From Ligula intestinalis (lineage: Eukaryota; Platyhelminthes; Cestoda; Diphyllobothriidea; Diphyllobothriidae): 64,000 nucleotides of DNA. Made by a program: the position numbers and the translations under genes. Under the pieces are notes generated by a model. That model made no database searches, was not told the origin of the DNA, and was given only the letters and a program-made list of their open reading frames with translations. Below, in pieces: positions 3,501 through 56,430 of this stretch (the first letter of the stretch is position 1; each line of letters starts with the position of its first letter). The stretch covers positions 8,703,866 through 8,767,865 of the forward strand of contig JAYGXS010000010.1 in NCBI GenBank assembly GCA_036362985.1, written 5' to 3'.

Positions 3501-6500
3501 TCCTCTACCAACGAAATTTAAATATATACACAGGCATTTCGTGATTTTCAAGCGAATATACTAATTTGCCCCTTTCGTTTCCTTTTTTGGTTAGAAAACA
3601 TTTTCTGAGGTAGTTCATGGTAATTTTCTTCTTCATGTCTCCCTCGGTCGTCAAAGGTGTTTTCCCTTTTTTACTCCCTTAGCCCTGCTGTGCCCAAACT
3701 GCGAAGCCGCCTATCGCGCTTAGCATGTTCGTCCGTAGGCACAATCCTTTCGCATCTTCGTTTACCAACGTTTACACACCATGTCCATCTATCCATCCAT
3801 CCATCCATCCATCCATCCATCCATCCATCCATCCATCCATCCATCCATCCATAAATCGCCCCCTCCCCGTCCTACCTGTCCGCCAACACCTCTCGATGGC
3901 ATTCTTATTTCTTAAGAGGCATCGGTCGCCTGTCGGATGAGGCGGTACACGCCGTTAGCTTTCTGTGCTTTTTTCCCCCAACATCGGCGTAAACATCTTG
4001 CTGACGTCGAAGGATTTTTTCCGGCAGTAGAAACTGTTGTGACCCTTCTCCCCACCGATGGACTTTCGCTGGAACGTAATTTATGTTTCGGTCGCCAAAA
4101 GGAAATCTGTGCCCCCCCCCTCCCAGTTGCGTGCTCCAAGCGCAGAAAAACACTAAGTGCTTCAACCCTTTTTAATCCCGTCGACAGTTCCTTTCTTTTA
4201 CTCTCTAGCCCTATCGTCTAGTGCCGGTACTAGTCTTCTGCGTCCATAGTTCACGACCCAGCGTGGTCCAGTTCCTGCGATCGGAAGCCCGTCTCTCGGC
4301 CCTCATTGTCCTGTTGCGTTCTGGAAGTCTGTTAACCACATCTTTCTGCCATTTTGGTTGATCACCACCGCTGCAGATAGCATGACAGAAGGTTAATGCT
4401 GTGACGAGATAACTTAGACCCTGCAGTGCGCGTTTGTGTGGAGTGGCAGACTGGTGGACTGAGAGCCAGGCGGCGGTGGCTCCTCCTTAATCTGGTCTTG
4501 TTAGCACTCGCACTGCGTGAGCTCCAGGCCTGATGTTGCGGAATGCCTGTGATCTCTCGCGCCTTCGAGTGACTTTTTCATGGCATTTGATTCAGGTGGT
4601 AGAGGAGGAGGAGGAGAGTGAGGTTAATGCAGCGCAACTCCACCCCTTTTATAAACTCACCGTCCCTCCTCCACCTTGCTGTGGGACACAGGGTGGACCT
4701 CGTCTAAATTGACGCTAAAACTGTCTTGTCGCGAAGACACTTCACAGCAGGCCGGTAACGCGTATCACCTTACCATCTAAGAAGGTAGCCGTCTGTTGAA
4801 ACGTCGGTAGATACCGCTGTTCATTCGCATACTTTCATTCAGAAGACGTAGTAGTTGTAGCATCTGACGTGTCACCGTCGAATTACGCCCTGTTGAAATC
4901 CCCATTAAAAAAAACACAATAAGAAGGACATGATTCCGGACTCCACCCGGAGGAGTTATCTCGGGTGGATGTTGCCGCTGGTTGATCGCCAGTGCGTTCT
5001 TTCTCCCGCATCGAGGGTAAGCTTCGGTATTGGGAGCGGACTAGCGTGTCCTCGCTGTCCACGTGTGTGATGCAACTCTGCCTATGTCAGGGTTGACAGT
5101 GACAACTGCGACTCGTGGCGCACGCGAGGAAGCGCGTGCATCTGTGTCCTTTCCAGAGGTTAAGGTCATCTCCCGTGGGCAGTCATAGCCTGTATGCGGT
5201 CAGAGCTAACAAGCAAAGACACTTGGCTAGGCTCGACGCCTCAGGAAAGCCTCCAATTGTTGCTACCACTGGGTCAGGCTACCGTCCTAGCAGTAGTCAC
5301 TAGTAATTCAACATCCTGCTTCTTCTCAGGTCTGCCATGCACGGTTGCAAATATAATAGCCGGCGGCCTGAAGAGGCGAATAGTTTGAAATATATCGGGC
5401 CGTGTTGCTGGCAAGTAGACAGGAGAACGACACCATCGTCAGGATCAATGGTGTTAGCAGGTTCTTTTAAAGCTTAAAAATCCTCGACCGCCACCAGTAT
5501 CCACCTGCGTTAGGACTGCCCAACTAGCCTCTCTTCTGTGTAGAATAATCATAACAGTATCTCAAAGATATTGATGATGAACATTCAAAGCTATTGCCGA
5601 CCGGGGTCGCAGGTAGATCTTTAGGCTGGCAGAAACCTGCTCCACCACGAAGGATAGGTTATCTTCACGAATGCGAGAAAATACTCGTATTCCAGGAATT
5701 TCTATTGGTAAAGGAGACATATGGTCGAACACTGGAACAAAATTTATTTTTGCCAGTGTTCCAGTGTTCGACCATATGTCTCCTTTACCAATATAAATTC
5801 CTGGAATACGAGTATTTTCTCGCATTCGTGAACAATTCGGGCGCGAGGCGCTTCGCATAGCTCGCAGCTGGGAGCTATTCTCCACACGAGAAGCAGCAGC
5901 CTATGAACAGCTACGCTTCCTTCACAAGTGCCTTCAACAGGATCTGACGCCACGATGCCTCAGATATAAGGCACCAGTGAATACGGCTATGGGGAGAGAA
6001 GTTACCAAAAGGTTCATCAAACAGATAGTGAGAGTCCTCATTGATGACTGCCACCGACGCATAATAAAGTACAAGGCCAAGATTGAGGAGGATAAAAGAG
6101 AGTGTTTCCAGATCTTTGGAGATTTTATTGCCGAGAATCTTGGAAAAACGATCTCAGCTTTAACACGAAACCGGCAGGCCAAGAAAAGGGAGATTTTGGC
6201 GAGAAAGCTGAATAAATTGAAACCTGCAGACACTACGAATTCTGACTTAGTCCACAATTTTTCGTCGAAACAATTAACAGAGCAGCAATTACGCGTGCTA
6301 CAGCACGAAGCCTGTTTTAATACTGCAGATGCCGACCCAATTGACTTCATTGCTACAGTGGAAGCGATGTTGGTGAAAACGGAAGCAACTGACGACACTA
6401 AACATTCAATACGACAACGTGTGATCTCCTTGCTTATGGCTCATAAACCAGCCAGCTACATCTCGCAAAGTGAGTCAAAAGCCTTGAGAGAACTGAAGAA

Positions 6501-9500
6501 AGATGATAGTATTATCATCTTACCTGCTGATAAGGGACGGTCGACTGTCGTGATGAACCGACAAGATTATAACGTCAAAGCTAAGACTCTTCTTGACGAC
6601 AGAGAATTTTACCAACCAACACCCACTTCGCAAGCCAAAGCATTATCCAACCGATTGACTAAACTTCTCAGAGAATACAGGAGCAAGAATGTGATCACTA
6701 TGAATGAGTGGCGCCAAATGAAAGTAACGGATACAGCTCTGGCGCGATTTTATGGACTTCCAAAAATCCACAAACCGAATGTCCCACTTCGGCCAATCGT
6801 TGCTCTTCAAGGCAGCCCAACCTATAACTTGGCAAAGTGGATGTATAGAAAACTTAAATTCCTCCAAGGCAACTCGATTACCTCAGTTCAATCAGCCTCT
6901 CGATTCCTCGAGGACCTCCGAGGTCGGACAATTCAATCAGACGAAATCATGGTCTCTTTCGATGTGACTTCATTGTTCACATCCATACCGCCAAAACTGG
7001 CGCACAATATCTTACAGAAGAGACTTGAAGAGGCATATGATGAGGCCCAAAGCCCCTTAAAAATTGAACACCTTATGAGGTTATTCGAATTCTGCCAGAA
7101 AACTTACTTTACCTTTGCTGGAGAAACGTACGAACAGATCAAAGGAACTCCAATGGGCTCCCCGATCTCTGGCTTAGTGGCAGAACTGGTTCTACAGGAA
7201 CTAGAAAGCATCGCCTTCGCCCAACATGAGCCTGTCTTCTGGCGCCGCTACGTCGACGACACGTTTGTCATCATCAAGAGAAACATGCTGCAAAACTTCC
7301 ATGACTTGCTCAATGGAATATTTCCTGACATACAGTTTACACGGGAAGAAGAAAAAGAGCAGCAGCTGCCTTTCCTTGATGTCCTCGTCAAGAGAACACC
7401 CAATGGTGAATTCGAGACGACGGTTTACAGGAAGGCGACGAACACAACACAACTCCTAAGTTTTCACAGTAACCATCCAGTTGCTCACAAACGGAGCTGT
7501 GTAAAAACACTCTTCAAACGGATCCAGACCCACTGCAGTAAACCAGAGGAAAAGGCACGCGAGGCCAGATATCTCCGTGACCAGTTCATGCGGAACGGTT
7601 ATCCAAAAGCATTTATAAACCGATGCCTACGCGTTCGGCCCCGGAGGACCCAAACAGAAGAACCACCGAAGATATGGCACGCTCTGCCATACATAAAAGA
7701 CGTCTCAGAAGCGACTGAGCGCATCGCTGCAGGGCTAGGTGTTGGAATTGCACACAGACCCAAAGCTACAATGCGCAGCAGAGTGATGAAAATAAAAGAC
7801 CGGCTTACGCAGAATGAACAATCGGGTGTAGTATATCGCATCCCATGCCTAAAATGTCCCTGTAATTATGCAGGACAAACGGAACGCATGCTCGGATCGC
7901 GTATACGTGAACACAAGCAGGCCGTGCGACTAGGCGACGAATCATCACAAGTTGCAACTCACACCTACAAAACAGGCCATGAGTTCAACTTCGCTGCCGT
8001 CAAGGTACTCGCCCACGCGGGAAACAAGACGAGCAGAGAATTTATCGAAGCCTGGTCCACGGATGAGAATTCGGTCAACAGATGTGTCGAATTGGCGCCA
8101 GCGTACAGGGCCTTACGCTACTGCAAACGATCACGTCCAGACGCCCGCCGTAATCAGTTAGCCCAAAATCCTCCATAATCATCCCACTTTCGATGCTGAC
8201 GTGGCCATTTGGCGCCCAAGCCTACATTATCCCTCGCTTCTCTTCCCTTCTCCTATGACTTTTTAATTTCTCATCCCTCCCACCATAACTATTACTTGTG
8301 TTGTTGACGATTCTATTTTTGTAAATATTTCCACACAACTTGTCGGTCTTGCCTACTGGCACTGGCTAGCACAGCCCTCAGTGGCAAGCCGGCAGCACAC
8401 ACAATTATTGATTTTCTACACGTTCAAAATTTTAGTTATTGTACACCCGCCCCAAGTAGCTCCACATTTGTTGCTGTTTCTCCACCTCTGACGATGGGCT
8501 CTTGTAAGAGCTCGAAAGCTCAGGCAAAAATAAATTTTGTTCCAGTGTTCGACCATATATCTCCTTTACCAATAAATTATCTTCGCTGTGACGCTCTTCG
8601 AGGATATCTCAGGTAATCGGAGATGGACGAATGACGCGATTTTAATTGCTGTCTATCGTATAGCATAGAATCGATTCTTGTGAGGTTTTATTTTTATCGT
8701 ATTGAGGTGGAATGAATCGAACTTTCTAGGCTCGCTGCCGCTAATCAGGACGCATGGAGAATTATCATCCTGGCATCCTTATGACCGAATAAATCAAATA
8801 TGAAGTCCTATGGAATATGATAAGTTGACACTTTCTGGTTATAAAAATGGTATACCGACCCAGGAGGGCGGATTTTATAAGCAAGACTAGGAATCACCTG
8901 ACTCTGTTTCCACATCCATCTTTTCGCATACTTCGGATATGTGAGCCAAACCATTGATTCTACTCGTGAGATTAAGTTGATACTGCATTGGAATTTCAAC
9001 TCTCTTTCCAGCCGTTGGGTTTCTCCTTCAAACTATCAGAGTGACATATTACTTCCTGACCTTGGAAGAGTTGCATTTTTATAAAAAAAATTGACAAAAT
9101 CTTCCTTTCTGCTTGCTGTTTAGGTCATTTTCAACTGTCGTCGGAGAAGCACCGAGGGCTGGAGCATTGGTCAAATCATTTGTGACTCAACTGGCGGCGT
9201 TTTGAGTATTCTGCAAATGATATTAATCGCCTACAACAACAGTGAGTATTTAAGCCCTTAGTTTATGCCTTTTTCATTGATTCTGGCGGTTTAATTGTCT
9301 GATAATGACTTCTAGTCGCCGTTCACTTCATCGAAAACAGACTCCTACGTCGTATACTTTTTGTGGTTGGGTTATGGCAGGAACCGGCTTCCAACGGAGC
9401 GTATGATAGAACCTGCCTGTTTATTTCTACTTCTCAGTAAGTTCTCAGCGTGCTCATCTCCGTCAGATAATCTGACAAAAACTAAACGGCAAATGCAAAG

Positions 9501-11703
9501 AATCGGAATCGGCGAACGCATCTTCCAACGCCGGCGTCAGAAAATCTGTTGGTTGAACAATCATCACGCCGGCATCCAGCACAGACAACTAAAGTTTAAC
9601 AAGCCATTACCCGCACGGCGGCCCTCAAGCAATTAGCACACGAGCGGGCAACTGTCGTGGATAGGTGGAATCGTTAATTATCATAGGTGGGCAGTAGACT
9701 AGTGACTGCAACTGCCTCTGCAAGAATTACCAATTTCTGCTACTGTCTCCGCGACGGTACCAACTATTGCATCTACTTTTTGGCAATGAGAAAACGGATC
9801 TTGACGATACAAGCGAACATGCGTGTCCCAGGAAGCAACTGAGAAGAAGCAGGCTCGATCGCTGGGACACTATGTTTATTCGCCTGACGTTTCGACATCT
9901 GTCGCGGACTCATAATCGGAGACATGAACAGTAGCAGAAAAGGGTAATGCATGTACAGAAGTTTGCAGTATTTATACGATACAGTCATTACTGCAAACAT
10001 ACAGCGACAATTAACGTTACTTGCCTTTTTGCGCGTGGATAGTTTGTTTGACAGCACGCGGGCTCTGACCTGTTTAACTTTCATCACGGGTGGTGTGCTC
10101 GGGCGTGATGATTTCTCGGCCGTCTGGCTCTCCGGTGTTGGCGTGAGATGAGGCGGTGGCCTGCCCGTTCCTCAAGTGAGGACTTGCTTGGGCCAAATTG
10201 ATTCTCAACATTGAATATGGATTGGGCAACACGTTGTACTTGTTTATGGATTGGGGGCCCGTGAACCATGAACCGAGAACTACTTGACTCATGGTTCACG
10301 AACCCTTAATCCATAACCAAGTGCAACGATTTGCCCAATCCATATTCAATGCTGAGACTCAATTTGGCCTGTCTGCTACTGTTTTCTGCTAATGTCTCTG
10401 ATGATGAATCCGCGATGGATGTCGAAACGCCAGGCGAATAAACGTATTGTCCCAGCGATCGAGTCTTCTTCTTCTCAAAATGGATCTTAGCTTTCCTCAA
10501 CTGACTGCCCACAGCCGTACTGCTCGCCTCTTGCCTATTCATGCGCCGGCATAGCTTGAGGTTTATGTTTGAGATATTTACGGTCCAAAACCGCCATATT
10601 GTTAGCTTATGAGGGAAGCTAAACTCGGGGGTACAAATTACGATCCCCCTGACCTTCTTCCTGAGTACTTCGCTTTTGCTGACTGCCCTTCAGTGTGCAG
10701 CCACTCACGAGCACTTTAGGTTCCCTCTCCAATTTTTTCTTGTCTGGCTGTCAATTAAGATCGACGCGGATAAGGGGAATGCCAATAGCTGATGATGATT
10801 TCGAGTGAAGTTGTCATAGCTGGCTTGATAGCCCAACAATGGGCTGTCAGTGTAGATTACCTCGAGCTTCTACCTAGCAGTTCACACCCCCCCCTTCCCC
10901 CTTATCGCACACTCTCGTTCAGCATGAATTATTTCAGCTTTTTGGTACATAAGGATGCTGGGGCAGTAACCCTACCAGTTAATTTATTCATGTACCACTC
11001 ACAGTGGCTGTATAGTAAAGGTTACTCGATCCAAAAATCGGGTCCCGGTGATCACATCTGCTTCTTCTCAGTTAGTCGATCCGTTGCTTAGACGCGACCT
11101 GCGAATCATCCACCATCAGTATTTGCGAGACCCGCATCATGTCCACCCCATTCGGCTTTGAGCATCATTGCTTAAAGCAGGCGAGTAAAATACTTAATGT
11201 CTTTTCTTCTTTTTGTCGCCGTCGCCATCGTCCTCTCCCTTTTCTCTCTTTCACCATCGTATTCATATTTATCATCCCCATCTTTCATATTATCTTATTA
11301 CCATTGTTAAGGTTTTGCACTCGTTATATGGTTTATCATACTAACAGCACAGATGCCAGCCAAAAATCTGCGATTGCTAGGTCCTACCCATTTTCGACTC
11401 CTCATTTTGTACTTTTCTTTCTCCTCCTAGGTGATTACCTATAACTGTCTTCCTCTCCTAATCTCCACCTTGGTTGGTATTTTAGATGAATGGTCAAGCT
11501 TCTGGGGCTCTCCCACCAAACTGGGTCTTGCTCTGCTTTCCATCAAATATGACATCGTCTTCTTTATGCAGCACTACGTTTGCTACCGCGAGAGGCCGGT
11601 GGTTATCATCGAGGTAGCACCCTCTGCGATCCAACCCACACTGGATACGGGCACCGTTGACACGACAGAGACGTCTCATCTTCTAGAGCATGCAGCTGCT
11701 TGA
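374..11703 (+). CDS. CTNS: Cystinosin-like lysosomal cystine transporter, 3' part (three exons)
   Basis: The coding sequence joins 374-544, 9124-9241 and 11486-11703 (507 nt, 168 residues plus stop). Cystinosin is a seven-helix PQ-loop protein that exports cystine from lysosomes with protons. The translation shows RGSQRVS before a hydrophobic segment, [14 protein letters not shown] at the end of exon 1, [12 protein letters not shown] with D-S-T-G-G in exon 2, and [20 protein letters not shown] plus [10 protein letters not shown] in exon 3. These align without gaps to the C-terminal third of animal cystinosins, and acidic residues in DSTGG and KYDIVFF correspond to conserved membrane aspartates of the family. 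Splice phases (0, then 1) restore YNN-N-E-W across the last junction, matching YNNDQW in the human protein. The N-terminal half and start codon are upstream of the window. The C-terminal tail differs from the vertebrate one. No clear AATAAA follows the stop. Confidence 0.93.
1387..1852. mobile_element. Foldback element I (near-palindromic, MITE-like)
   Basis: A 466-bp inverted repeat starts GCTAAAAACCCA and ends TGGGCCTTTTAGC. The arms meet at 1622-1663, where GGCGTAGACC is separated from GGTCTACGC by nine bases. They then match outward through CTTAATCTCCTGAG, CAGCTTTCCCT and TTTCGTCGGTATTCTA-type blocks. The left arm carries an extra block of about 39 bases (around 1513-1551) that the right arm lacks. 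There is no coding capacity. The structure fits a foldback or MITE-type DNA element; its family is unknown. Confidence 0.7.
2340..2545 (+). repeat. Degenerate telomere-like CCTAA tract with boundary box
   Basis: Loosely repeated six-base units such as CCCTAA, ACCTTA and AACCTA fill about 160 bases. A block then reads TTGGCGCAAG, a few variable bases, and CCTGTATTGCGGG at 2512-2537. The same block follows the next tract. Confidence 0.6.
2790..3003 (+). repeat. Second degenerate telomere-like tract with the same boundary box
   Basis: Imperfect CCCTAA-type units run to about 2970 and are followed by GTTGGCGCAAGG, three variable bases and CTGTAATGCGGGCG at 2974-3003. Tract plus box is duplicated relative to 2340-2545, so this looks like a dispersed composite repeat and not simple sequence drift. 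Confidence 0.6.
3195..3360 (-). mobile_element. tRNA-derived SINE, family B
   Basis: On the minus strand the element starts with a pol III A-box-like TAGCTCAACTGTTAGG and a B-box AGTTCAAATCT. The family body follows: a GGTTGGATATCAC block, CCGATGACGCCTAATAAGGC, then AGAAAAGGCCTTC. The body resembles copies at 26985, 41035, 51025 and 61665. Confidence 0.65.
3785..3852 (+). repeat. (CATC)n microsatellite
   Basis: About sixteen nearly perfect CATC units. The ISHPSIHP-type peptides read through it are artefacts of the repeat. Confidence 0.95.
4225..4400 (-). pseudogene. Possible 3' end of a LINE reverse-transcriptase ORF
   Basis: One minus-strand frame is open for about 55 codons and ends at a stop near 4218. 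It reads [19 protein letters not shown], then [20 protein letters not shown] basic region with DRxxW and a nearby L is typical of the C-terminus of many LINE ORF2 proteins. No RT motifs are visible upstream, so this is a weak assignment from pattern alone. Confidence 0.25.
4400..5560. other. GC-richer intronic stretch, unassigned
   Basis: Base composition is clearly richer in G and C than the flanks. Several short frames are open, but none shows a motif I know. It may be the remains of an older repeat into which, or next to which, the PLE inserted. Confidence 0.4.
5659..5666 (+). repeat. Left target-site duplication of the PLE (TTATCTTC)
   Basis: The octamer TTATCTTC lies directly before the element and recurs at 8577-8584 directly after its tail. 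Fusing the flanks restores GATAGG-TTATCTTC-GCTGTG as the likely empty site. Confidence 0.65.
5664..5832. repeat. Inverted pseudo-LTR of the PLE
   Basis: Arms of 76 bases (5664-5739 and 5757-5832) flank a 17-base spacer. By eye they differ at one position (AATAG versus AATAT around the middle). The spacer plus left arm read in reverse equals the element's own 3' tail at 8522-8574, so the 5' end is an inverted copy of the 3' terminus joined to a direct copy. Confidence 0.85.
5797..8178 (+). CDS. Penelope-type reverse transcriptase with GIY-YIG endonuclease
   Basis: The frame is open from 5797 (a TAA lies at 5794-5796) to TAA at 8176-8178, at most 793 residues. The first in-frame ATG is at 5989, but conserved N-terminal PLE sequence ([20 protein letters not shown]) lies upstream of it, so the true start is unclear and may be non-AUG. 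Numbering from the GTG at 5977, visible motifs are [11 protein letters not shown] near 183-193, [10 protein letters not shown] near 258-267, [12 protein letters not shown] (catalytic D329), [10 protein letters not shown] near 390-399, YVDDTF (D427, D428) and PFLDVLV. The C-terminal endonuclease has GVVYRI near 617, [12 protein letters not shown] near 630, R-I-R-E-H and EFIEAW near 688. All key RT and endonuclease residues are present and there is no internal stop. The protein copies element RNA onto nicked chromosomal DNA. Confidence 0.9.
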   Translation: MPGIRVFSRIREQFGREALRIARSWELFSTREAAAYEQLRFLHKCLQQDLTPRCLRYKAPVNTAMGREVTKRFIKQIVRVLIDDCHRRIIKYKAKIEEDKRECFQIFGDFIAENLGKTISALTRNRQAKKREILARKLNKLKPADTTNSDLVHNFSSKQLTEQQLRVLQHEACFNTADADPIDFIATVEAMLVKTEATDDTKHSIRQRVISLLMAHKPASYISQSESKALRELKKDDSIIILPADKGRSTVVMNRQDYNVKAKTLLDDREFYQPTPTSQAKALSNRLTKLLREYRSKNVITMNEWRQMKVTDTALARFYGLPKIHKPNVPLRPIVALQGSPTYNLAKWMYRKLKFLQGNSITSVQSASRFLEDLRGRTIQSDEIMVSFDVTSLFTSIPPKLAHNILQKRLEEAYDEAQSPLKIEHLMRLFEFCQKTYFTFAGETYEQIKGTPMGSPISGLVAELVLQELESIAFAQHEPVFWRRYVDDTFVIIKRNMLQNFHDLLNGIFPDIQFTREEEKEQQLPFLDVLVKRTPNGEFETTVYRKATNTTQLLSFHSNHPVAHKRSCVKTLFKRIQTHCSKPEEKAREARYLRDQFMRNGYPKAFINRCLRVRPRRTQTEEPPKIWHALPYIKDVSEATERIAAGLGVGIAHRPKATMRSRVMKIKDRLTQNEQSGVVYRIPCLKCPCNYAGQTERMLGSRIREHKQAVRLGDESSQVATHTYKTGHEFNFAAVKVLAHAGNKTSREFIEAWSTDENSVNRCVELAPAYRALRYCKRSRPDARRNQLAQNPP
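8179..8482 (+). other. PLE 3' untranslated region
   Basis: Non-coding, pyrimidine-rich sequence between the ORF stop and the hammerhead-like module. I see no additional motif. Confidence 0.6.
8483..8527 (+). ncRNA. Hammerhead-like ribozyme core at the PLE 3' end
   Basis: CTGACGA at 8488-8494 fits box 1 (CUGANGA). GCTCT and AGAGC (8498-8502, 8507-8511) form a five-base stem II with loop TGTA. GAAA at 8514-8517 fits box 2. It is followed by GCTC, so AGCU would be a palindromic stem III and C the cleavage-site base. ACCT before box 1 and AGG after the cleavage site give three stem I pairs. AATAAA follows at 8530. The match is to the known pattern; activity is untested. Confidence 0.55.
8577..8584 (+). 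repeat. Right target-site duplication of the PLE (TTATCTTC)
   Basis: Second copy of the octamer, immediately after the AATAAA that ends the PLE tail. Confidence 0.65.
9124..9241 (+). CDS. CTNS: Cystinosin exon (PQ-loop 2 continuation)
   Basis: The exon is 118 nt. It follows CTTGCTGTTTAG and ends at ACA|GTGAGT, leaving one base (A) of a split codon. It encodes [17 protein letters not shown], then DSTGG and LSILQM, and ends at [11 protein letters not shown] and the acidic DxTGG are the most conserved part of the second PQ-loop of cystinosins. No longer open frame reveals this exon; splice sites and family similarity define it. Confidence 0.93.
9779..10271 (-). mobile_element. PLE 3' end, subfamily A (minus orientation)
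   Basis: Read on the minus strand, this is PLE 3' untranslated sequence with CCAATCCATATTC. It shares blocks such as GCCACC..CATCTCACGC with the copy at 24000-24300. It is followed by a hammerhead-like module and the tail GTGTCCCAGCGATCGAG, then CTTCCTGGGACACGCATGTT. No coding remnant is attached. Confidence 0.6.
9881..9924 (-). ncRNA. Hammerhead-like module (box 1 decayed)
   Basis: On the minus strand, TGTCT precedes box 1, AGTCCGCGACAGAT is the stem II region, and CGAAACGTC then AGGCG follow. TGTCT with AGGCG gives a complete five-pair stem I. Box 1 reads CCGATTA, not CTGATGA, so this copy should be inactive. AATAAA follows directly. Confidence 0.4.
10185..10365. repeat. Palindrome joining two PLE 3' ends
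   Basis: Arms of about 85 bases, containing GAATATGGATTGGGCAA and GTGAACCATGA and their complements, meet near 10272. This is the junction between the minus-strand PLE end and the plus-strand one at 10272-10480. Confidence 0.75.
10272..10480 (+). mobile_element. PLE 3' end, subfamily A (plus orientation)
   Basis: This is the partner of the minus-strand copy, shorter by an internal deletion between the CTCAATTTGGCC block and CTGCTACTGTT. It ends with a hammerhead-like module and the GTCCCAGCGATCGAGTCTTC tail. Confidence 0.6.
10393..10436 (+). ncRNA. Hammerhead-like module (intact boxes, GCC at cleavage site)
   Basis: TGTCT and AGGCG can form five stem I pairs, two of them G-U. CTGATGA is intact at 10398-10404. 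ATCC pairs with GGAT around loop GCGAT. GAAAC is intact. The usual GTC is GCC here, which removes the conserved U of stem III and should weaken cleavage. Confidence 0.5.
11486..11703 (+). CDS. CTNS: Cystinosin terminal exon with cytosolic tail
   Basis: The exon follows GGTATTTTAG. Its first two bases complete an AAT codon with the last base of the previous exon. It encodes [14 protein letters not shown], the last membrane helix around [12 protein letters not shown], the basic end YRERP, and a tail of about 37 residues ending SHLLEHAAA before TGA at 11701-11703. Human cystinosin ends a few residues after RKRP with GYDQL. Here the tail is longer and carries ETSHLL, a match to the acidic dileucine sorting pattern [DE]xxxL[LI]. 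Confidence 0.93.
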
Positions 11704-20920: not shown

Positions 20921-21205
20921 AGGTCTTTATTAGGAGCTTTGGCAGATTTGCTTAATTTGCGTTGACCCAATTGTGAAAAACTTGAGGCATTCGGCGGGAT
21001 TTGAACCCGCGTAATAGAGAAGGCCTGTTCCTCAAGCCAACGCTCTAACCACTCAGCTACAAACGCCTCATCTCGCGCCATGGGTCAATATTGCCCGCCC
21101 AACTTTACCGTTCTTATGGAATCCACCAATAAAGAACAGCAAACTGAGTGTCCAAGCAGGATTCCCTAAACAATCATCTAGAATCCACCAGAATGACTAT
21201 TAGGC
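20921..21205 (-). mobile_element. tRNA-derived SINE, family A, copy 1
   Basis: On the minus strand a 5' segment (TTCTGGTGGATTCTAGATGA, GGGAATCCTGCTTGG) precedes a tRNA-like unit. That unit has GGCGTTTGTAGCTGAGTGG (A-box) and GCGGGTTCAAATCCCGCC (B-box and T-arm), then the tail TTTTTCACAATTGGGTCAA, AAATTAAGCAAATCTGCCAA. The anticodon region is longer than in a real tRNA. Confidence 0.75.
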
Positions 21206-21499: not shown

Positions 21500-21625
21500 A
21501 TTTGTTCAATGAAGTATATGCCATTGCTGGAACAACTTTTTTCTTCTCTAGACGTTTCAGATTCTAGCTTGAGCCAATCTTCAGAGACAGCATCAGATAT
21601 GGGATAATTCGTACACATGGAGTCA
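21500..21625 (-). repeat. PLE 3' end, subfamily B, with degenerate hammerhead-like module
   Basis: On the minus strand it has ATCTGATGCTGTC, a long spacer, GAATCTGAAACGTC, and then TTGTTCCAGCAATGG. Box 1 and the GAAACGTC box are recognisable, but stem II is enlarged. Confidence 0.4.
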
Positions 21626-21839
21626 TCGCCTTTGCAAAATGCAGTCACTATACCATTTAATATCTCTGAAAATTAACCACTCGCCTGTTTGAGGTTTCAG
21701 TGGCTTACCGGCATTGGCATTGGAAACTATTTTCAGCTGCGCACTCTCGGAGCAAGTTAAGTTAAAGTACGGAATCAGGGGTTGCGGAGGTCACTGCACT
21801 GACTGGGAACCCGTACACTATGACTTAAGCAGACTAATA

Positions 21840-21975
21840 CTGATACCCCAATCTGTGCATGTCCTACCCTTTTCTATGATTACCTATGGGTAAAGATTCT
21901 CTACAGAATCCGAAACGTCAGTCACATAAAATTATTGTTCAAGCGATCGCGTCTTCTACTTCTAGGCTAGTAGTG
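21840..21975 (+). repeat. PLE 3' end, subfamily B
   Basis: ATCTGTGCATGTCC and CTATGATTACCTATGG are followed by GATTCTCTACAGAATC, a perfect six-base hairpin with a CTAC loop at the stem II position. CGAAACGTCAG and a TTCAAGCGATCGCGTCTTCT tail follow. Box 1 is not intact. Confidence 0.45.
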
Positions 21976-22084
21976 TTCTGGTCCTAGGGATTGCGTCTAC
22001 TGCTTCTCAAATATTTCCCGGGACGAGCTGTTTTTCCTTGCATCGAAAAAATACTTAATCCAAGGTTTCTATAACTCAGAAGAG

Positions 22085-22270
22085 GCAATAACTGGAACAA
22101 CAGTTTTATTTTCCTAACGCTTCGGTCTCTGTCAAGAATCCTTAATCATAGGTTATGGCAGGATAGTCTGAGACATGCGCAGATAGGAGTGATACATTCA
22201 CGGATTGCGCGGTATTTATAGTTCGCAGGCGGGCAATGAAATAGGTTACCGAATTGAAATGGCGCACATT
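22085..22270 (-). repeat. PLE 3' end, subfamily B (minus)
   Basis: On the minus strand it shows ATCTGCGCATGTCTCAGACT, CCTATGATTAAGGATTC, then AGCGTTAGGAAAATAAAAC and TTGTTCCAGTTATTGCC. The first two blocks match the copy at 29890-29960. Confidence 0.5.
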
Positions 22271-23995: not shown

Positions 23996-24385
23996 GAGCT
24001 GAGAACTACTTGAGTTATGGTTCACGGGCCCCAAATCCATCAACTAGTTTAACGATTTGCCCAATCCATATTCGGGGCTGAGACTAAAGTTAGCCAAAGC
24101 AAACCACCGTTCAGGGAACAGACATGCCACCACATCATCTTATGCTAACACTGCAACGCCAGATGGTTATTGCTGACTCAACGAATCAGTGCACTTTTAC
24201 GGCATTTATCGATTTGTATTGTACGTTTAAATTTTACGGCAAAACCTTGTGCACATACAAACTGCTACTGCTACTGTTCTGTGAGTATGTCTCTGATGAT
24301 GAATACGCGACGGATTTCGAAACGTCAGTCGAATAAACATAGTGTCTCAGCGATCGAGTGTTCTTCTACTTCTCAAAGGCAGGGG
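23996..24385 (+). mobile_element. 3' end of the PLE relic (subfamily A untranslated region and tail)
   Basis: GAACTACTTGAG, ATGGTTCACGGGCCC and TTGCCCAATCCATATTC match the palindrome arms at 10185-10365. CTGCTACTGCTACTG then leads into the hammerhead-like module and a CAGCGATCGAG tail. This copy links the coding relic with the subfamily A 3' end. Confidence 0.7.
24288..24331 (+). ncRNA. Hammerhead-like ribozyme module, best-preserved copy
   Basis: CTGATGA is intact at 24293-24299. Stem II is AATAC and GGATT around GCGAC, four pairs with one mismatch. GAAAC and GTC are adjacent at 24319-24326, and TGTCT and AGTCG give four of five stem I pairs. ACGU between box 2 and the cleavage base is self-complementary and has no loop, so stem III can form only between two molecules or two tandem units. 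AATAAA follows at 24332. Confidence 0.55.
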
Positions 24386-26329: not shown

Positions 26330-26404
26330 CCGAAACAGAAGTAGAAGATACGAGCACTGGAACAAGGTTATTTAAGTGTCGTTTCAGATTCTGTCTTAAA
26401 CCCT
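26330..26404 (-). repeat. PLE 3' end attached to the relic at 26405
   Basis: On the minus strand CAGATGAAGGG, then GAATCTGAAACGAC and TTGTTCCAGTGCTCGTATC directly follow the coding relic. This is a degenerate hammerhead-like module and tail. Confidence 0.4.
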
Positions 26405-26800
26405 TCATCTGAGATGACCGCAGAACAGCGCTGTGTTGATCTCGCGTGTCATCGTATTCGTGGGTCTGGATTTGCATGGAATATAGAAATGAAGATACCC
26501 TAAAAAGATTTTAGCTGTGTCAATGTAGTATTTCCTGTCAAACACGACCATGGTGTTCCCCTTGTCTGTAGGCGCAATAATGAGGTCAGTATCAGTCATG
26601 AGTTCCTTTAGTGCATTACATTTGACCTTAGAGATAACGTTTCCTGGTCTGTGAGTCATGAGTAGGGATGACACTTAGTGCCATCTAAGGTTCTTCGTGC
26701 CGTCCGTCGCTTCCACTTAGCTGATAGTTGACTCTAGTGCAGCCACCATGTTAGCAGATTTAGTATCAGCTGTGTTAAATGAGGCTACTTGCCCTAGCAG
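26405..26800 (-). pseudogene. PLE relic: N-terminal RT region only
   Basis: The minus strand reads LLGQVASFNTADTKSANMVA, then VEATDGTKN, SSLLMTHRPGNVIS, LIIAPTDKGNTMVVFDRKYY and FYIPCKSRPTNTMTREIN. It is collinear with residues about 112-220 of the intact PLE ([35 protein letters not shown]). It contains in-frame stops near 26674 and 26725. The RT core and endonuclease are missing, and the coding part runs straight into the 3' tail, so this is an internal-deletion derivative. Confidence 0.8.
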
Positions 26801-29819: not shown

Positions 29820-30060
29820 AGTAGCCTAGATCCGCGCACCTAATCATAAAATTCCGAAATGTCTATTCCGAATGCTCCACCCATTGATACAAGATTGTGA
29901 AACATCTGCGCATGACCATGACTGTTTTATGCTAACCTATGATTAAGGATTCCCGAGGGAATTTGAAACGTCAGGAAAATAAACCCCTTGTTTCAGTGAT
30001 CGCATCTTTTTCTTCTGAAATGCTGCCTGGAACTCGTATATTCTCCTGTCGCATTTCTGA
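29820..30060 (+). repeat. PLE 3' end, subfamily B, with variant hammerhead-like module
   Basis: CATCTGCGCATGACCATGAC and CCTATGATTAAGGATTCCCG are followed by AGGGAATTTGAAACGTCAGG and TTTCAGTGATCGCATC, ending CCTGGAACTCGTATATTCTC. ATTCC and GGAAT form stem II and GAAACGTC is intact. Box 1 (TATGATTA) is not. Confidence 0.5.
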
Positions 30061-30396: not shown

Positions 30397-33159
30397 GGAC
30401 TAACTGGAAACACTGCACTGCTTTACTATCTGAAAGATGCCAAGAATCACCTTCTTTCAGCCACGACAGGACGCAGTCACCACTAGCCCTGGCTTCGTCA
30501 GTGGCGGGAACTCGGGGTTCCACGCCGAAGAAGTCCCTCATGCTGGTAGCTTCTGCCTTTATCTGAAGTCCGAATTTGACGTAATAGTGGTAGGGGTACG
30601 AGCAAAACGACTGTCAAGACCCTAAAATCTCAAACAATATTCCACAATGATTTTTATTCTACGGCTCAATCAGGATATTTTTGATGTCGCATTTGGCCAT
30701 TTGAAGTAGTAATTCTTATCATTAAATCGTGTGTGTACTGAAAGTCGCATACCTAAATCTTTGCTTTTGTAATATTCAATTTCAGACCGGGTTTGAGGAT
30801 CTTGAGCATAAACCCCGCAAGTGAAAGCACAATCATCAGATGCACGAGGAGCAAAAGGTCATATGCGAACGCCATTTGAACAAAATCGGACAAATTACAG
30901 TAAAATGCCTGCAATTAGATACCTTTTTTCTATCAATATCGAGTGTAGCAGAAAGTATGTCTGGTTTTTATCGGGTCACTGTACACTAAATAAATTATCA
31001 GATCACACAGACCTTTATTGAAGTCCGTTAACAGAGATGTCTACATCTAACGGAGGCATCTCCCTCTGCCCAGGCCGACTTTTACTCTGGATAGGGATCT
31101 AGCTGGTCTGGGCAGAACGTTTACCGTATTCCAAAGCATGACGGTAGTGACGACGCAACGCTTGTCTGAATCACAAGTGAGTGAGCAGCTACCATAAACC
31201 TGATTTCTTCCAACCCGTCATTTCCAGTTGATATTGGCTAACGCAAAAAACATGTGAATTTTGAGTTGCCCACTGTAGACGGAGGGCAGTGTATCACTGC
31301 ACATTAACTTACTGTGAAAAACAATTAAAAATGTTCTCTTTTGCTGTTTAGTATTATTTTCCACCTAAACAAAATGGAAACTTTACTGTTATACAGAACA
31401 ACTAAGAAGTGTAGACAGTACACATATATAAAGGCGGTTTTTCAAAACTATTTTTACTTCAGATCCAATATCAGGACCTATTTTTTGATATAAATGGCTG
31501 ACGAAGACACGTTACGCAGAAATGAACATAACAGTCTTCCTTATCTTTGTCGGTATGCGTTCCTATTAAAGAATGAACCGCTGAGGAGTACCGAATATCC
31601 AATCGATGATGCATAATGTACGAACTTATTTTATGACGTTGGCCATCTAGAAATTGGTCTTGTTCACGTTGGGGCGTTTCGCTGGGCCTTTAAAAGTGCA
31701 TCAATGACCATCGATAGCCATCTCAATCCAGTGTACTTAAAAACGATAGGTTAAGTTACTGCATTTTCTCTGTCATATGATAGTACCTACGTAAGCTTCC
31801 CCGAATAAATGGATTTGCAATACTGGCAAGCATTCGGAAAACATCTGGCCGGTGCAAGAGCGAATCAACGTTGCAGTATCTAAACACTAGAAATATCCGT
31901 GTACAATGTTTGCTGTGTAGTTTCGATGGAGCAAACTCGTTCGCGGGGGTTCTTCCTATAATATATATATTTCGACCCACCGCTATATTTACTTTCAAAA
32001 GTAGGCTCAAATTTACTATAGTGTTTTTTGCAAAGGTTATGGTTAAATTCTTTCAAATTTTACTCCTCTCTAAACCCTTACAATTATGTTTAAACTGTGC
32101 TGAGATACCAGTACTGGAGTGCTAATATTGAGCTGGTCCCTTTGGCCACCTAAGCGTCTGGTACTGTTCCTGCTGCCACAATGGACATGCGAACCACAGG
32201 TTATTTTTGCAAAGAAGACCATGACGATATTACTCACACAGACCTGATATAAGTCTGAGATTTTGTACTCGTCCACGAGGCCATGAAAGGTTGTGCCCGT
32301 GCTCCCGTCTTCTCACCTCATCATCTCGGCATACTTCCTTGGCGTCATTATCTCTGAAGATAGCTTTCTATAAGAATCCAAAAGCTCAGAATAATACAAG
32401 CGTGCCTTCCTTGCATTAATGAATATTGCCAATTTTTCCTGGTGTGATCTCAATGTGTCGGATTTGCAATTCTTCTATTGTTATGAAAAAGATGTCTCCT
32501 ATGGTATTGCCACCAATATAGCAAACCTGGCGCGTGGAGCTAGGAATTCCATCATAAAAGTACACAACCCTGCCAACAGAGCCAAATAGCAACTGAATTC
32601 CACATACGCGGTGGTTGTGCTTGCATCTGCTAACGTTCCATCGAGGTGTTACCTTTATTAACCACCGAACGTTCACTAAGGATGCTTGAAAGCTACGTAT
32701 TACGGATAAATGTCTTTCTGGTTAACATACATAAAAAGCAAAAATAATTCCAAATAAATCTAGAGGTACCCTTGCGTATCTGTCAGGCACGCATACCGCA
32801 TTTCCGACCGAAAATTGTTTTTTGGTTTTTTGCACAGATCATAGTTAATATGAACACAGTTCTGGAGAATTTATGGCTGGCTAAAATCTGCACGGGGACT
32901 TCGGGCCCCAAATTGAGGGTAATTCAGAAATGCGATTCCTTACTTGCAAATGAACACGATCTTTGAATGCCACGTGGCTAAGCGGGGTAAACTTTTGCCC
33001 GACATAATATGAGCAAACATTGCAGAACGCTGGCTGGGTTTGAATAACTGCTTAACAATAAATCTGCTGCTTGCAGGAATCTCAATTTACCTACGGCCCT
33101 GAATAGGTTAACTTCCTTGGTAAGGTTTCCTTATAAACTACAAAGTAGTTTACTACACA
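30397..33159. other. Nothing recognised
   Basis: AT-rich. Frames at 31756-32010 and 32416-32676 (minus) and others show no motif or repeat I can name. Confidence 0.5.
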
Positions 33160-33838: not shown

Positions 33839-34220
33839 TTAGTCATTAATTTTTTGTAGTTTAGAAATTCAGCTATTTTTATCTTTTCTCCTTTAGTTTG
33901 ATTTTAAGTTAGATTAGCTTTAGCGTAGTTAATTTTAGTTGGGTTAGTTAGGTTTACTGTCAATTAAGCCTTTGTTTCCCTCAGTTTTTTACTTTACGAT
34001 TGAGTTGCATCAGTTTTAGTTTATTTAAGTGATAGATAACTGCGGTGTTGTTTATAAGGAAAGCTCAGCATTTCCTCAAAAGTTTTTACGTTTTCCTGTA
34101 ATTGTGGTTAATGTGTAGAAGCTGCAATTATCAGAAAACTTCATTTTTTAAATAATTATACAATGCAGTAAAAAGACCACCTCAAGAAAATGTTAACAAA
34201 TACAAAATCGTATTTAATTA

Positions 34221-34261
34221 GTGACGTTTCGATAACCATCGTGGATTCATCATCAGAGACA
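34221..34261 (-). ncRNA. Hammerhead-like module, intact boxes
   Basis: On the minus strand CTGATGA, a weak stem II (ATCC, ACGAT, GGTT) and CGAAACGTC are all present. Stem I is poor beyond the first pair (TGTCT versus ACTAA). Confidence 0.45.
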
Positions 34262-34275
34262 TGAGTAGCTACTCA

Positions 34276-34319
34276 TGTCTTAGATGACGAATCCGCGACG
34301 GATATCGAAACGTCAGGCA
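34276..34319 (+). ncRNA. Hammerhead-like module, box 1 mutated
   Basis: TGTCT and AGGCA pair fully as stem I. ATCC pairs with GGAT around GCGAC. GAAACGTC is intact. Box 1 is TAGATGA, not CTGATGA. AATAAA follows directly. Confidence 0.45.
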
Positions 34320-34395
34320 AATAAACATATTGTCCCAGCGATCGAGTCTTCTCCTTTTCTCAATTGCTTCCTGGGACACGGATGTTCACTTGCAT

Positions 34396-51200: not shown

Positions 51201-52604
51201 TGCCACGGTCATGAGGGTTTGCGTTGCGAGCTCCTTGGCAAAGCGGAATTTAATTGTTCCTTGACTAGATCGGTGAAATACCTCCATTTATTCATTTCTA
51301 GTATTTCCACGTTTAACACTGTACTTTTTCAATTGTTTTTATCCTTCCCATGATTTGCTCACCTTATTAACCCTTGTTACAACCTGTCCCGCAATGCAGA
51401 AGGATGGAGTTTTCACGTGCCCTAAATGCAACTTACGCCGGTTTGAGCCTTGTTCGCTTTGCCTGTATTAGTTGCCTGCGATGTTCAATCTCGAAGGGCG
51501 GGGGAAGAGATAAGGACAACGGCAGTTGAGATAGAAAGTTTCAAAACTCGTTCCGGAGTATAAAAATGTGGTCACTTACCTACTGACTCGGTGCATTCCA
51601 AAACCGTACAGCTTCGAACATAATCGAGAGTTCTGCGGTCAATTAGCTAATCTTGATTTTACCTTATACCATTTACACATTTTTGCCAAACGTCTCTTGT
51701 TTTCATTTTATTTTTAATGTCATAGGAAATTTTTAAGTAATGAAACTTTGAGTAAATCTGCCTGTTAGGCTTTTGGAGATGTCGGCGGATAATTGGCATG
51801 ACTATTTGTACAGACTCCTAGCAGACACCACTGGATAACCACGTTTTACTCGTTAAACCACTAGTAAGCAGAAACTAGTATAAACGGGAATGAAAAATTA
51901 CCACATATTGATCGGACTCGTGTTTAGTCGATATTGTACACTCGGTCTTTCCTAGGGATCCACTGGTGACCATAATATCCCACCACTCTGTACATGTGCT
52001 GTGTCCAATCACTCTTGTATGCGCCTTAAGTTCGCTGTCTCCGATAGAAATCAGCTCGAATATTCATATAAAAACAGTCTCTGCTATAAAACGTTAGCGA
52101 ATAATTTCAAGGAAATTTTAAAATTCAAAATTTAAAACCGATGTTTCTACTGAAAGCGCTGAGGGATCGCTGTTGGACCCACTGATGAGCCAAGCCCTGG
52201 CAGCGGTGGCATAGAGCGACAAGGTGCTGACCAAATCCTTGTTCGGAATTTAAACAGGGATAATGGTGTAACAAGTAACTCCCAAAAATTTTATAGCTAG
52301 CTGTAACCTGACAACGGAGACTATCCAAGTTTCTTGTTCAAAGTAACGCTGACACCCTTTTTCCCCCCTTATACACTGAAGCTCCAAATAGGTCCATGTG
52401 CAAAAGAGCACCTACGATTTAACTGCTGTCTCTACCGCGTTACTGTTCTACATGGAGTGCATATTTACCACAACGACACGCCGGTGAACACGCAACTGCA
52501 ATGGTTAAACTTAGCGTGGGCTTCAGCCTTCACTATATATATAACAGTTTAGGTGTAACCAATGTCAGAACTAGCTTTAGGTGCATACGGCATGAGAAAA
52601 AAAG
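51201..52604. other. Nothing recognised
   Basis: AT-rich. No motif-bearing frames. Confidence 0.5.
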
Positions 52605-52690
52605 AGATAAGATCACTGAAACAGCAATTTTCTTTGATTGAAGTTTCTGATTCTCATTTGGACACATCATCAGATATACTCACAGATAAG
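52605..52690 (-). repeat. PLE 3' end with degenerate hammerhead-like module
   Basis: On the minus strand ATATCTGATGATGTGTCC, then GAGAATCAGAAACTTCAATC and a CTGTTTCAGTGATCTTATC tail. CTGATGA and GAAAC remain; the GTC is lost. Confidence 0.4.
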
Positions 52691-53299
52691 TGTGATGGAC
52701 GTACAAGGAGCGCAGCATTTGTAGGATGCATCCACCTCCTTACTATATGCTCTCCATAAAAAGCAATTTCTGTGTGCACCGCTGGTGGTGTAAATCGTAC
52801 GATGATGGCTTGCTTGTCCGCCTCCAAAGCGTTGTGTGCCAAAGTTTCGCTATTATAGTCGACTGGTGGCGTAAAAGGTCTTTCCATTTTGGACCGGCAT
52901 GGATATAGTAAGAAGAAACTGCACTTAATCCATTAAAACAATTAAGACGCATCTGCTAGGCACAGCCTTTTTGAACTCAATGTTTGCTGCCTGAAAGTTA
53001 CACCTGGTTTGTGATAGCAAGTCTGAACAAGAATCCGAAACATCCGGATCGAATCTTCTTTGCCTTCTTCTTAACCGCTTTACGAAACTCGTCATTTTGT
53101 TTCTACAGCGCAGAATGAGCACTGATCATGTTAAAGAAGATCAGCATGATCATTTTTTGCTTAGTTGACAGCGCCAGTCAGCCCTGCCTCAAAACTTATT
53201 TGGCGTGGGAAGGCGAAACAAAAAGGACATACGCCTGACGTAAACCTTATCAGTAAACGCCCGTTAAACGTACACTTAGACTTTTGAGAGGGATCACTT
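52691..53299. other. Nothing recognised
   Basis: Overlapping short frames on both strands without motifs. Confidence 0.45.
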
Positions 53300-53365
53300 T
53301 ATCTGTGTACATCTCTGATGGTGAGTTCGCATGGGAATCTTAAACGTCCTGCAGATAAACGCCTT
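53300..53365 (+). repeat. Decayed hammerhead-like module
   Basis: ACATCTCTGATGGTGAGTTC, then GCATGGGAATCTTAAACGTC and CTGCAGATAAACGCC. The order of blocks is preserved, but both core boxes carry substitutions. Confidence 0.35.
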
Positions 53366-56274: not shown

Positions 56275-56430
56275 AAGCGGGCGTTTATAGCTTAGCGGTA
56301 GAGCATTAGTCTCCAACGAAAGCTTTCTCTGATGCGCGGGTTCAAATCCCGCCAAACGCCTACAGTTTTTCACACTTGGGTCAACCCAAATTAAGCAAAT
56401 CTGCCAAACCATCTTCATAATTAAGTCAGC
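56275..56430 (+). mobile_element. tRNA-derived SINE, family A, copy 2
   Basis: GGCGTTT at 56280-56286 pairs with AAACGCC at 56354-56360 as a seven-base acceptor stem. TAGCTTAGCGG is the A-box and GGTTCAAATCC the B-box, with a perfect T-arm (GCGGG, CCCGC). The anticodon arm is oversized (CATTAG and CTGATG around about 19 bases), so this is a tRNA-like SINE head and not a working tRNA. The tail TTTTTCACACTTGGGTCAA, TTAAGCAAATCTGCCAAA follows. Confidence 0.75.

What the first reader, a model, noticed from the sequence alone, without database searches (positions are those of the whole stretch)
24288..24331. PLE ends carry a loopless, dimer-type hammerhead ribozyme; stem III covaries between copies
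CTGATGA, a small hairpin and GAAACGTC occur in order at many PLE 3' ends here. Box 2 runs straight into the cleavage triplet with no loop, so stem III is the palindrome ACGU and can form only between two ribozymes. In the intact PLE (8488-8521) the same position reads AGCU: C-G became G-C and the palindrome is kept, which is what selection on a dimeric fold would produce. Hammerhead motifs in PLEs are known from published work; the covariation seen between lineages in one window is what I add.
Basis: partly seen in the sequence, partly recalled or inferred. Interest (0 to 1): 0.75.

Follow-up and report, generated by a model that had tools for sequence, protein, structure and literature searches.

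The report
Dimer hammerheads with swapped base pairs
A tapeworm genome carries thousands of tiny self-cutting RNA motifs in its Penelope-type jumping genes; the pairing-up design is already known, but some lineages have exchanged base pairs while keeping the pairing, one of them inside the catalytic core.

Summary
In detail: 24293-24326 and 8488-8521 hold loopless hammerhead modules with a self-complementary stem III (ACGU, AGCU); the window has 14 usable copies. The host looks like a diphyllobothriid tapeworm; in its genome the core pattern matches 25,230 times (reversed control 629). Helix III-less, dimer-acting hammerheads in Penelope-like elements are published, so the design is not new. 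The stem III claim is partly right. Among families 15.2-16.2 is C-G or G-C, the only two of 16 choices with a stable dimer helix; G-C occurs in at least two families (best tree two changes; one origin not rejected). Single copies lose the pair one side at a time, and 11 of 100 otherwise identical copies already have. Natural U3-A8 is published; I found no natural A3-U8, but could not read two key papers. Cleavage is untested; insertion ends show no pile-up at the cut.

The parts
24289..24330 (+). Hammerhead module, family F1: stem I 5' strand 24289-24292 (GTCT), box 1 24293-24299 CTGATGA, stem II region 24300-24318, GAA 24319-24321, A15.1 24322, CG = 15.2/16.2, U16.1, C17 = 24326, predicted cut 24326|24327, stem I 3' strand 24327-24330 (AGTC; one U.U mismatch)
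8484..8525 (+). Hammerhead module of the PLE with the long ORF, family F3: CTGACGA, 7-bp stem II GGGCTCT/AGAGCTC (one G.U), GAAA-GC-TC, predicted cut 8521|8522
   Evidence: a profile trained without F3 finds it at E 3.1e-09
29936..29975 (+). Module of family F2: CCT-ATGATTA-A-GGATTCC CGAG GGAATTT-GAAA-CG-TC-AGG; A3-U8 in place of C3-G8
22077..22221 (-). F2 copy with A3-U8 (15.1 changed to G)
21849..21964 (+). F2 copy with A3-U8 (A6 changed to G)
10364..10479 (+). F1 copy, GAAA-CG-CC (16.1 changed)
9840..9979 (-). F1 copy in antisense, head-to-head with 10364-10479
34213..34309 (-). F1 copy; the family homology stops at the predicted cut (GTC|A)
34228..34359 (+). F1 copy, box 1 mutated, head-to-head with the copy above (palindrome about 34222-34315)
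32314..32401 (+). Weak F3-like copy, GC at 15.2-16.2, box 2 AAAA (E 0.13 with a profile lacking F3)
21509..21637 (-). Diverged copy, CG
26336..26461 (-). Diverged copy, CG with 16.1 changed to A
52595..52726 (-). Diverged copy, CT (pair broken)
53281..53394 (+). Diverged copy, CG
34330..34378 (+). Hairpin downstream of the module (TGTCCCAG ... CTGGGACA); one of its pairs reads C-G in 10, U-A in 9, U-G in 2 and C-A in 1 of 22 local copies
5977..8178 (+). 733-aa ORF of the PLE: reverse transcriptase (RVT_1, slightly under its cut-off), 77% identical over 95% to a Spirometra protein
5664..5832 (+). Palindrome at the 5' side of that PLE; its loop carries the sequence that begins next to the ribozyme cut of the family

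Best explanation
These are the small, stem III-less hammerhead modules of Penelope-like retroelements (PLEs), in what looks like a diphyllobothriid tapeworm. Box 2 runs straight into the cleavage triplet, so stem III can exist only as a 4-bp self-complementary helix between two modules, as published for such elements. Pair-keeping exchanges occurred between lineages: (i) C15.2-G16.2 became G-C in at least two families, one of them that of the 8488 element; (ii) the abundant F2 family has A3-U8 in place of the core pair C3-G8 and keeps U4, G5, A6, A9, G12, A13 and A14 as its majority state. Shown: the sequences, families and counts. Inferred: that F2 and the G-C families still cleave, that cleavage needs two modules, and that selection acted on source elements rather than on the thousands of decaying copies.
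For: Ungapped register: with 18-20 nt allowed, 98 of 100 listed C3/G8 copies and 96 of 100 listed A3 copies have exactly 19 nt between box 1 and GAAA. The core pattern free at 3, 7, 8, 15.2 and 16.2 gives 12,632 + 12,598 matches against 328 + 301 for the reversed control. Of 86 distinct listed copies 69 are Watson-Crick at 3-8 (shuffle mean 49.5, maximum 59 of 5000) and 60 at 15.2-16.2 (mean 36.5, maximum 51); background-corrected they rank 1 and 3 among free-position pairs. In 46 copies (14 window, 26 from 20 fixed 10-kb pieces, 6 from short loci) the same two pairs rank 1 and 2 of 91 core pairs. A3 pattern: 1,849 + 1,848 matches, control 0; position 8 is U in 87 of 96. Stem II is a 7-bp hairpin in F2 and F3 with different base pairs at the same places. 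Only CG (-1.7) and GC (-2.5 kcal/mol) of 16 dinucleotides give a negative dimer energy. GC occurs with several different stem II sequences and in two tail types; L041-L043 form a supported group (100/99) apart from the 8488 type in the best tree. PMC3088659 passages: C3 and G8 pair, natural U3-A8 exists, 3-8 covariants are active in vitro.
Against: Events are few: one or two for G-C (p-AU 0.288 for one clade); for A3-U8 the short, poorly resolved trees give 5 or 6 changes, which I do not trust as events. Shuffles ignore relatedness: a pair without structural meaning (3-p1) ranks 2. Given that both sites changed, some Watson-Crick pair arises by chance in 3 of 9 cases and G-C in 1 of 9. 15.2 and 16.2 deviate in 16% and 17% of 70 F1 copies, more than most stem II sites. 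4 of 7 one-change F1 copies have the change at these two sites out of 22 free sites (in two F2 reference types it is 2 of 12 and 0 of 12), and 11 of 100 otherwise identical copies are single changes there, so pair-breaking variants are common even in young copies. No cleavage data. No pile-up of insertion ends at the cut. In PAc, the anole PLE, the ribozyme was dispensable for insertion in vitro and inactive without protein (PMC11167929 passages).
Confidence: 0.75

Rival explanations
1. F2 is a dead ribozyme: C3 and G8 mutated one after the other in a source element that no longer needed cleavage, and the family spread with the broken module. A3-U8 pairing is coincidence.
For: Single changes at 3 or 8 are common in decaying copies (CA 5, CC 3, CT 3, TG 3, GT 2, GG 1 of 86 distinct rows). 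The F2 copies fetched are short palindromes.
Against: Of nine invariant core nucleotides the family majority changed only at the two that pair with each other, to a Watson-Crick pair, with stems I and II intact. F2 types with loops CGAC and CGAG and with N7 C or T share A3-U8.
Confidence: 0.3
2. The GC stem III is a neutral founder difference: changes fixed by drift in one or two lineages, with no selection for a dimer.
For: One or two origins only. Pair-breaking single changes are frequent in families with CG and with GC, and even in young F1 copies.
Against: GC is one of only two dinucleotides with a stable dimer helix and is the majority state across types with different stem II and tails (15 distinct GC rows).
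Confidence: 0.25
3. The conserved box is kept mainly as a signal bound by the PLE protein during target-primed reverse transcription, with hammerhead cleavage incidental.
For: PMC11167929 passages: ribozyme mutants did not affect insertion in vitro, and cleavage needed protein. Alignment ends of insertions cluster at about +40 to +53 and +75 to +94 downstream, not at the cut.
Against: A protein-binding box would not be expected to change precisely at paired ribozyme positions.
Confidence: 0.25

Closest known systems
Small hammerhead variants associated with Penelope-like elements (Lunse, Weinberg and Breaker 2017, PMC5785218; Cervera and De la Pena 2014, PMC4209133; neither held, only titles seen in reference lists)
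   Same: PLE location, near-absent helix III, dimer cleavage by the 2017 title; reviews say the same (PMC7761336, PMC6155905 passages)
   Different: Whether those papers already list G-C stem III or A3-U8 could not be checked
Natural core variants of hammerheads (Perreault et al. 2011, PMC3088659, passages)
   Same: Compensated exchange of the C3-G8 pair, there to U3-A8, in several natural examples
   Different: Here A3-U8, in a PLE family with about 3,700 A3 matches; no cleavage test yet
Dimeric newt, axolotl and viroid hammerheads (PMC7229834 passages; PMC6155905 passages)
   Same: Weak helix III, better cleavage as dimers; in axolotl a palindromic loop
   Different: Those keep a short helix III with a loop; the axolotl ones have loop 1-loop 2 contacts; here there is no stem III loop at all
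PLE insertion structure with head-to-head arms and optional tail (PMC3846280 and PMC11167929 passages)
   Same: Divergent palindromes; two clusters of 3' ends about 40 nt apart, like the two reverse-transcription start sites
   Different: Nothing clearly new; seen here in a tapeworm

Membership tests
Small PLE hammerhead (F1 and F3, incl. 24293 and 8488) | Core CUGANGA ... GAAA ... U-H17 | tested here: met
   98 of 100 listed with 19-nt spacing where 18-20 was allowed
Small PLE hammerhead (F1 and F3) | Stem I and stem II helices | tested here: met
   Strict scan 3 hits vs 0.05 in shuffles; stem II pairs vary with pairing kept; F1 stem II has a bulge and 24293 a stem I mismatch
Small PLE hammerhead (F1 and F3) | Helix III absent or loopless, self-complementary | tested here: met
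   ACGU or AGCU followed directly by C17
Small PLE hammerhead (F1 and F3) | Association with PLE coding sequence | tested here: met
   two window modules
Small PLE hammerhead (F1 and F3) | Cleavage after C17, faster as dimer | not testable with these tools
   needs in vitro RNA
Rfam hammerhead families | Match at gathering score | tested here: not met
   not filed under the Rfam models
Hammerhead, F2 module | Invariant C3 and G8 | tested here: not met
   A3 in 12 of 12 local F2 copies, U8 in 10 of 12; U8 in 87 of 96 of the A3 listing. F2 is called hammerhead-like, not filed as a proven member
Hammerhead, F2 module | Watson-Crick pair 3-8 and the other core nucleotides | tested here: met
   (the other core nucleotides were required by the pattern, and rows were kept only with at least 6 of 8 of them)
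Stem III under compensatory selection | More than one independent pair-preserving double change | tested here: inconclusive
   GC in two families; best tree two changes, one clade not rejected, p-AU 0.288

The most novel reading that the evidence does not exclude
The palindromic stem III is mainly a dimer-linkage site: it holds two PLE template RNAs together in one insertion complex, so that both target strands are primed and the two cDNAs meet head to head. The G-C swap and the A3-U8 core would be alternative ways of keeping such a paired, slowly cleaving RNA dimer. Divergent pairs are the usual arrangement of neighbouring modules here (18 of 23 pairs within 2 kb in the listings, read by eye), and in 10 of 12 fetched pairs the two arms end at clearly different tail positions.
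Probability: 0.08. Interest if true: 0.8.

Novelty: new variant of a known kind. Interest (0 to 1): 0.45.

Why it matters
If A3-U8 cleaves, it is a natural transversion of one of the most constrained pairs of the hammerhead core and makes a simple test of how far G8 is needed as a base rather than for its 2'-hydroxyl (that role is recalled). The C-G/G-C stem III families give ready-made natural partners for a mix-and-match test of dimer cleavage (ACGU with AGCU cannot pair fully), which would show directly whether PLE ribozymes recognise their own kind.

Tried and rejected
Junction idea: two window boundaries (34223 and 5740-5756) fall at the ribozyme cut, which suggested that cut RNAs are the templates. 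In 77 alignments of local copies only three ends lie within 2 nt of the cut (window 5754 and 34222, L026 6448); no formal test was made, but this is no pile-up, so the idea was dropped. Natural U3-A8 here: one row and two (one of them the same place, L006); decay at both sites explains it, dropped. Simple cDNA fold-back for the palindromes: in 7 of 12 fetched pairs the right arm runs further into the tail than the left, in 3 the left runs further, in 2 they are about equal (L039, L040), so the right arm is often not a copy of the left. CTGATGA...GAAAC matches of the type CTGATGAAGGCTAATAAGCCCGAAACAG (26 nt) belong to another repeat without the cleavage triplet and were not counted as ribozymes. 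Relatives in viral contigs: none.

Rows dropped before counts: 17 of 63 profile rows lacking a usable core. Rows with a gap other than 19 nt (2 of 100, 4 of 100) were left out of the family table and the per-site counts, but the dinucleotide total is over all 100. In one search families were assigned by the nearest of four stem II references, a loose rule. Six of the 46 rows come from loci fetched by a pattern that demands C3, G8 and C15.2 (L001-L008). The listings are the first 100 places along contig C1, not a random sample, and overlap one another. Nine long-branch rows and two of the seven places fetched (L045, L047) were left out of the tree; the tree used rows with at least 7 of 8 core letters, that at least 6. 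A script with a wrong row name stopped half-way and was run again.

Full report
What was claimed. A loopless dimer-type hammerhead at 24288-24331 and at many PLE ends, with stem III covarying between copies (ACGU in most, AGCU at 8488-8521).

Check of the sequence. Both modules are there as described. Cut sites by the hammerhead rule would be 24326|24327 and 8521|8522. Box 2 (GAA plus A15.1) is followed by two nucleotides, U16.1 and C17, so a stem III hairpin has no room for a loop. A profile search of the window gives 14 copies with a usable core. A strict structural scan gives 3 hits against 0.05 in shuffles. Rfam's hammerhead models do not report any of them.

Host and element. The 733-aa ORF 5977-8178 is 77% identical over 95% of its length to a Spirometra erinaceieuropaei protein and carries a reverse transcriptase domain just under its Pfam cut-off; a GIY-YIG-like C-terminus is my reading of the letters, recalled and not tested. 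The window lies in a 644-Mb genome with contigs of up to 118 Mb.

Families. Twenty 10-kb pieces at fixed positions of ten contigs, with the window and eight short loci, gave 63 profile rows, 46 of them with a usable core: 14 from the window, 26 from the pieces, 6 from the short loci. All 46 were read in one ungapped frame: 7-nt box 1, 19 nt, GAAA. F1 (24293 and several other window copies): CTGAYGA, CG. F3 (8488): CTGAMGA, GC, stem II GGGCTCT/AGAGCTC and relatives. F2: CCT-ATGAYTA-A-GGATTCC CGAC GGAATCC-GAAA-CG-TC-AGG. The tail hairpin downstream (TGTYCCAG...CTGGRACA) also covaries: one pair is C-G in 10, U-A in 9, U-G in 2 and C-A in 1 of 22 copies.

Stem III. In the 46 rows 15.2-16.2 is CG 32, GC 6, CA 3, CT 2, TG, TC and TA 1 each. 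In the first 100 genome places with C3, G8 and TCAGG required: CG 58, GC 16, CT 6, GG 4, AG, CA and TG 3 each, CC and TT 2 each, AC, GT and AT 1 each. In that table all 16 GC rows fall nearest to the F3 stem II among four references (16 of 18 F3 rows), a loose rule. In 86 distinct places with 3, 7, 8, 15.2 and 16.2 free: CG 43, GC 15, other 28. Hence two family states and much one-sided decay. In otherwise identical F1 copies (447 + 441 in the genome, control 0), 11 of the 100 places listed are not CG (CC 2, GG 2, CT 3, CA 2, TG 1, AG 1; counted by eye) and none is GC. It is not met among families: the two states are exactly the two dinucleotides with a favourable 4-bp dimer helix.

How many events. 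L041-L043 share stem II TGGCTTCTCGTGTGGAGCC or near it, GC, and a tail that scores higher against the tails of F1, F2 and F8 (a further CG family) than against F3 for L041 and L042, and against F2 and F8 for L043; L044 and L046 are nearer F3; L045 (AC) and L047 match none of the references by tail. In a tree without the four columns in question L041-L043 are a group of their own (100/99), the best tree needs two C-G/G-C changes (2 in the bootstrap range), but a single clade is not rejected (p-AU 0.288; 88 columns for 66 rows). An earlier tree without these rows also needed two changes, with one origin not ruled out. So one or two events; given two changed sites, the chance of any Watson-Crick pair is 3/9 and of G-C 1/9 for each event.

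Core pair 3-8. The more surprising signal is inside the core. In the 46 rows 3-8 is CG 27, AU 10, UG 3, AG 2, UA 2, CU 1, AA 1. Mutual information ranks 3-8 and 15.2-16.2 first and second of 91 core pairs (0.594, 0.592, next 0.224); over all columns two non-pairs rank higher (2.4-p8, p12-16.2), a sign of family structure. In one search, 3-8 ranks first, the non-pair 3-p1 second and 15.2-16.2 third after background correction. Genome-wide, CTATGANNA-(18-20)-GAAANNTCAGG has 1,849 + 1,848 matches with none to the reversed pattern. Of the 96 listed with the usual spacing, position 8 is U in 87; three of the nine others have an F1-type stem II and G8, so a simple C3 change. With C3 and G8 required the count is 4,072 + 4,039. 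C3 and G8 pair in the active fold; natural U3-A8 was first reported by Perreault et al., and 3-8 covariants are active in vitro (PMC3088659, passages). PMC11167929 passages: C3G/G8C partly rescues a PLE ribozyme. I recall, without a call, that Przybilski and Hammann (2007) found any Watson-Crick pair at 3-8 competent in two type III ribozymes. A natural A3-U8 was not found in the passages of PMC3088659 nor in the searches (no paper holds 'C3-G8' with 'hammerhead ribozyme', a weak test since PMC3088659 itself does not use that term; 8 papers listed, none about it by title). Lunse 2017 and Cervera 2014 are not held, so they may contain it.

What is already known. PLE hammerheads that lack helix III and may act as dimers are in print (PMC7761336 and PMC6155905, passages; Lunse et al. 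2017, title in reference lists). Head-to-head PLE insertions and the optional tail are in print (PMC3846280, PMC11167929, passages). I saw both patterns here: all 12 divergent pairs fetched are palindromes, and alignment ends cluster near +40 to +53 and +75 to +94 from the cut.

How it most likely works. Two PLE transcripts meet through the 4-nt palindrome, forming two hammerhead cores, each cut after C17 (inferred; published for the type by title). The G-C families keep this with AGCU, which is slightly more stable. F2 keeps the core with A3-U8 instead of C3-G8 (inferred). The genome gives no sign that cut RNAs are the usual insertion templates, in line with the anole PLE work.

Verdict. Stem III covariation is real between families but rests on one or two events and is contradicted among copies. 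The added and more surprising result is the A3-U8 core family.

Noticed in passing
window 34222-34315, 9840-10479, 5664-5832; L029-L040: Hammerhead-bearing ends sit head to head as palindromes; of neighbouring modules within 2 kb in the listings, 18 of 23 are minus-then-plus, 3 same strand, 2 plus-then-minus (read by eye).
   Followed up: partly
window 34330-34378 and 21 other local copies: Hairpin TGTYCCAG...CTGGRACA downstream of the ribozyme, with one compensatory pair (C-G/U-A); many insertions end inside its TTC-rich loop.
   Followed up: partly
F1 copies genome-wide: 15.2 and 16.2 are unusually variable in copies that are otherwise identical (11 of 100, 8 of them transversions), which simple decay does not explain well; F2 does not show it clearly.
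   Followed up: partly
L031, L037: In some palindromes the stem II loop of one arm reads CTCG where the other reads CGAG or another loop, as if the hairpin had been flipped.
   Followed up: no
L024:16-110, L024:3947-3816: A further lineage with GAAACGCC (A15.1-C16.1), which would break the first stem III pair.
   Followed up: no
window 20986-21066 (-) and 56281-56360 (+): Two tRNA matches inside dispersed repeats, perhaps tRNA-derived short elements.
   Followed up: no
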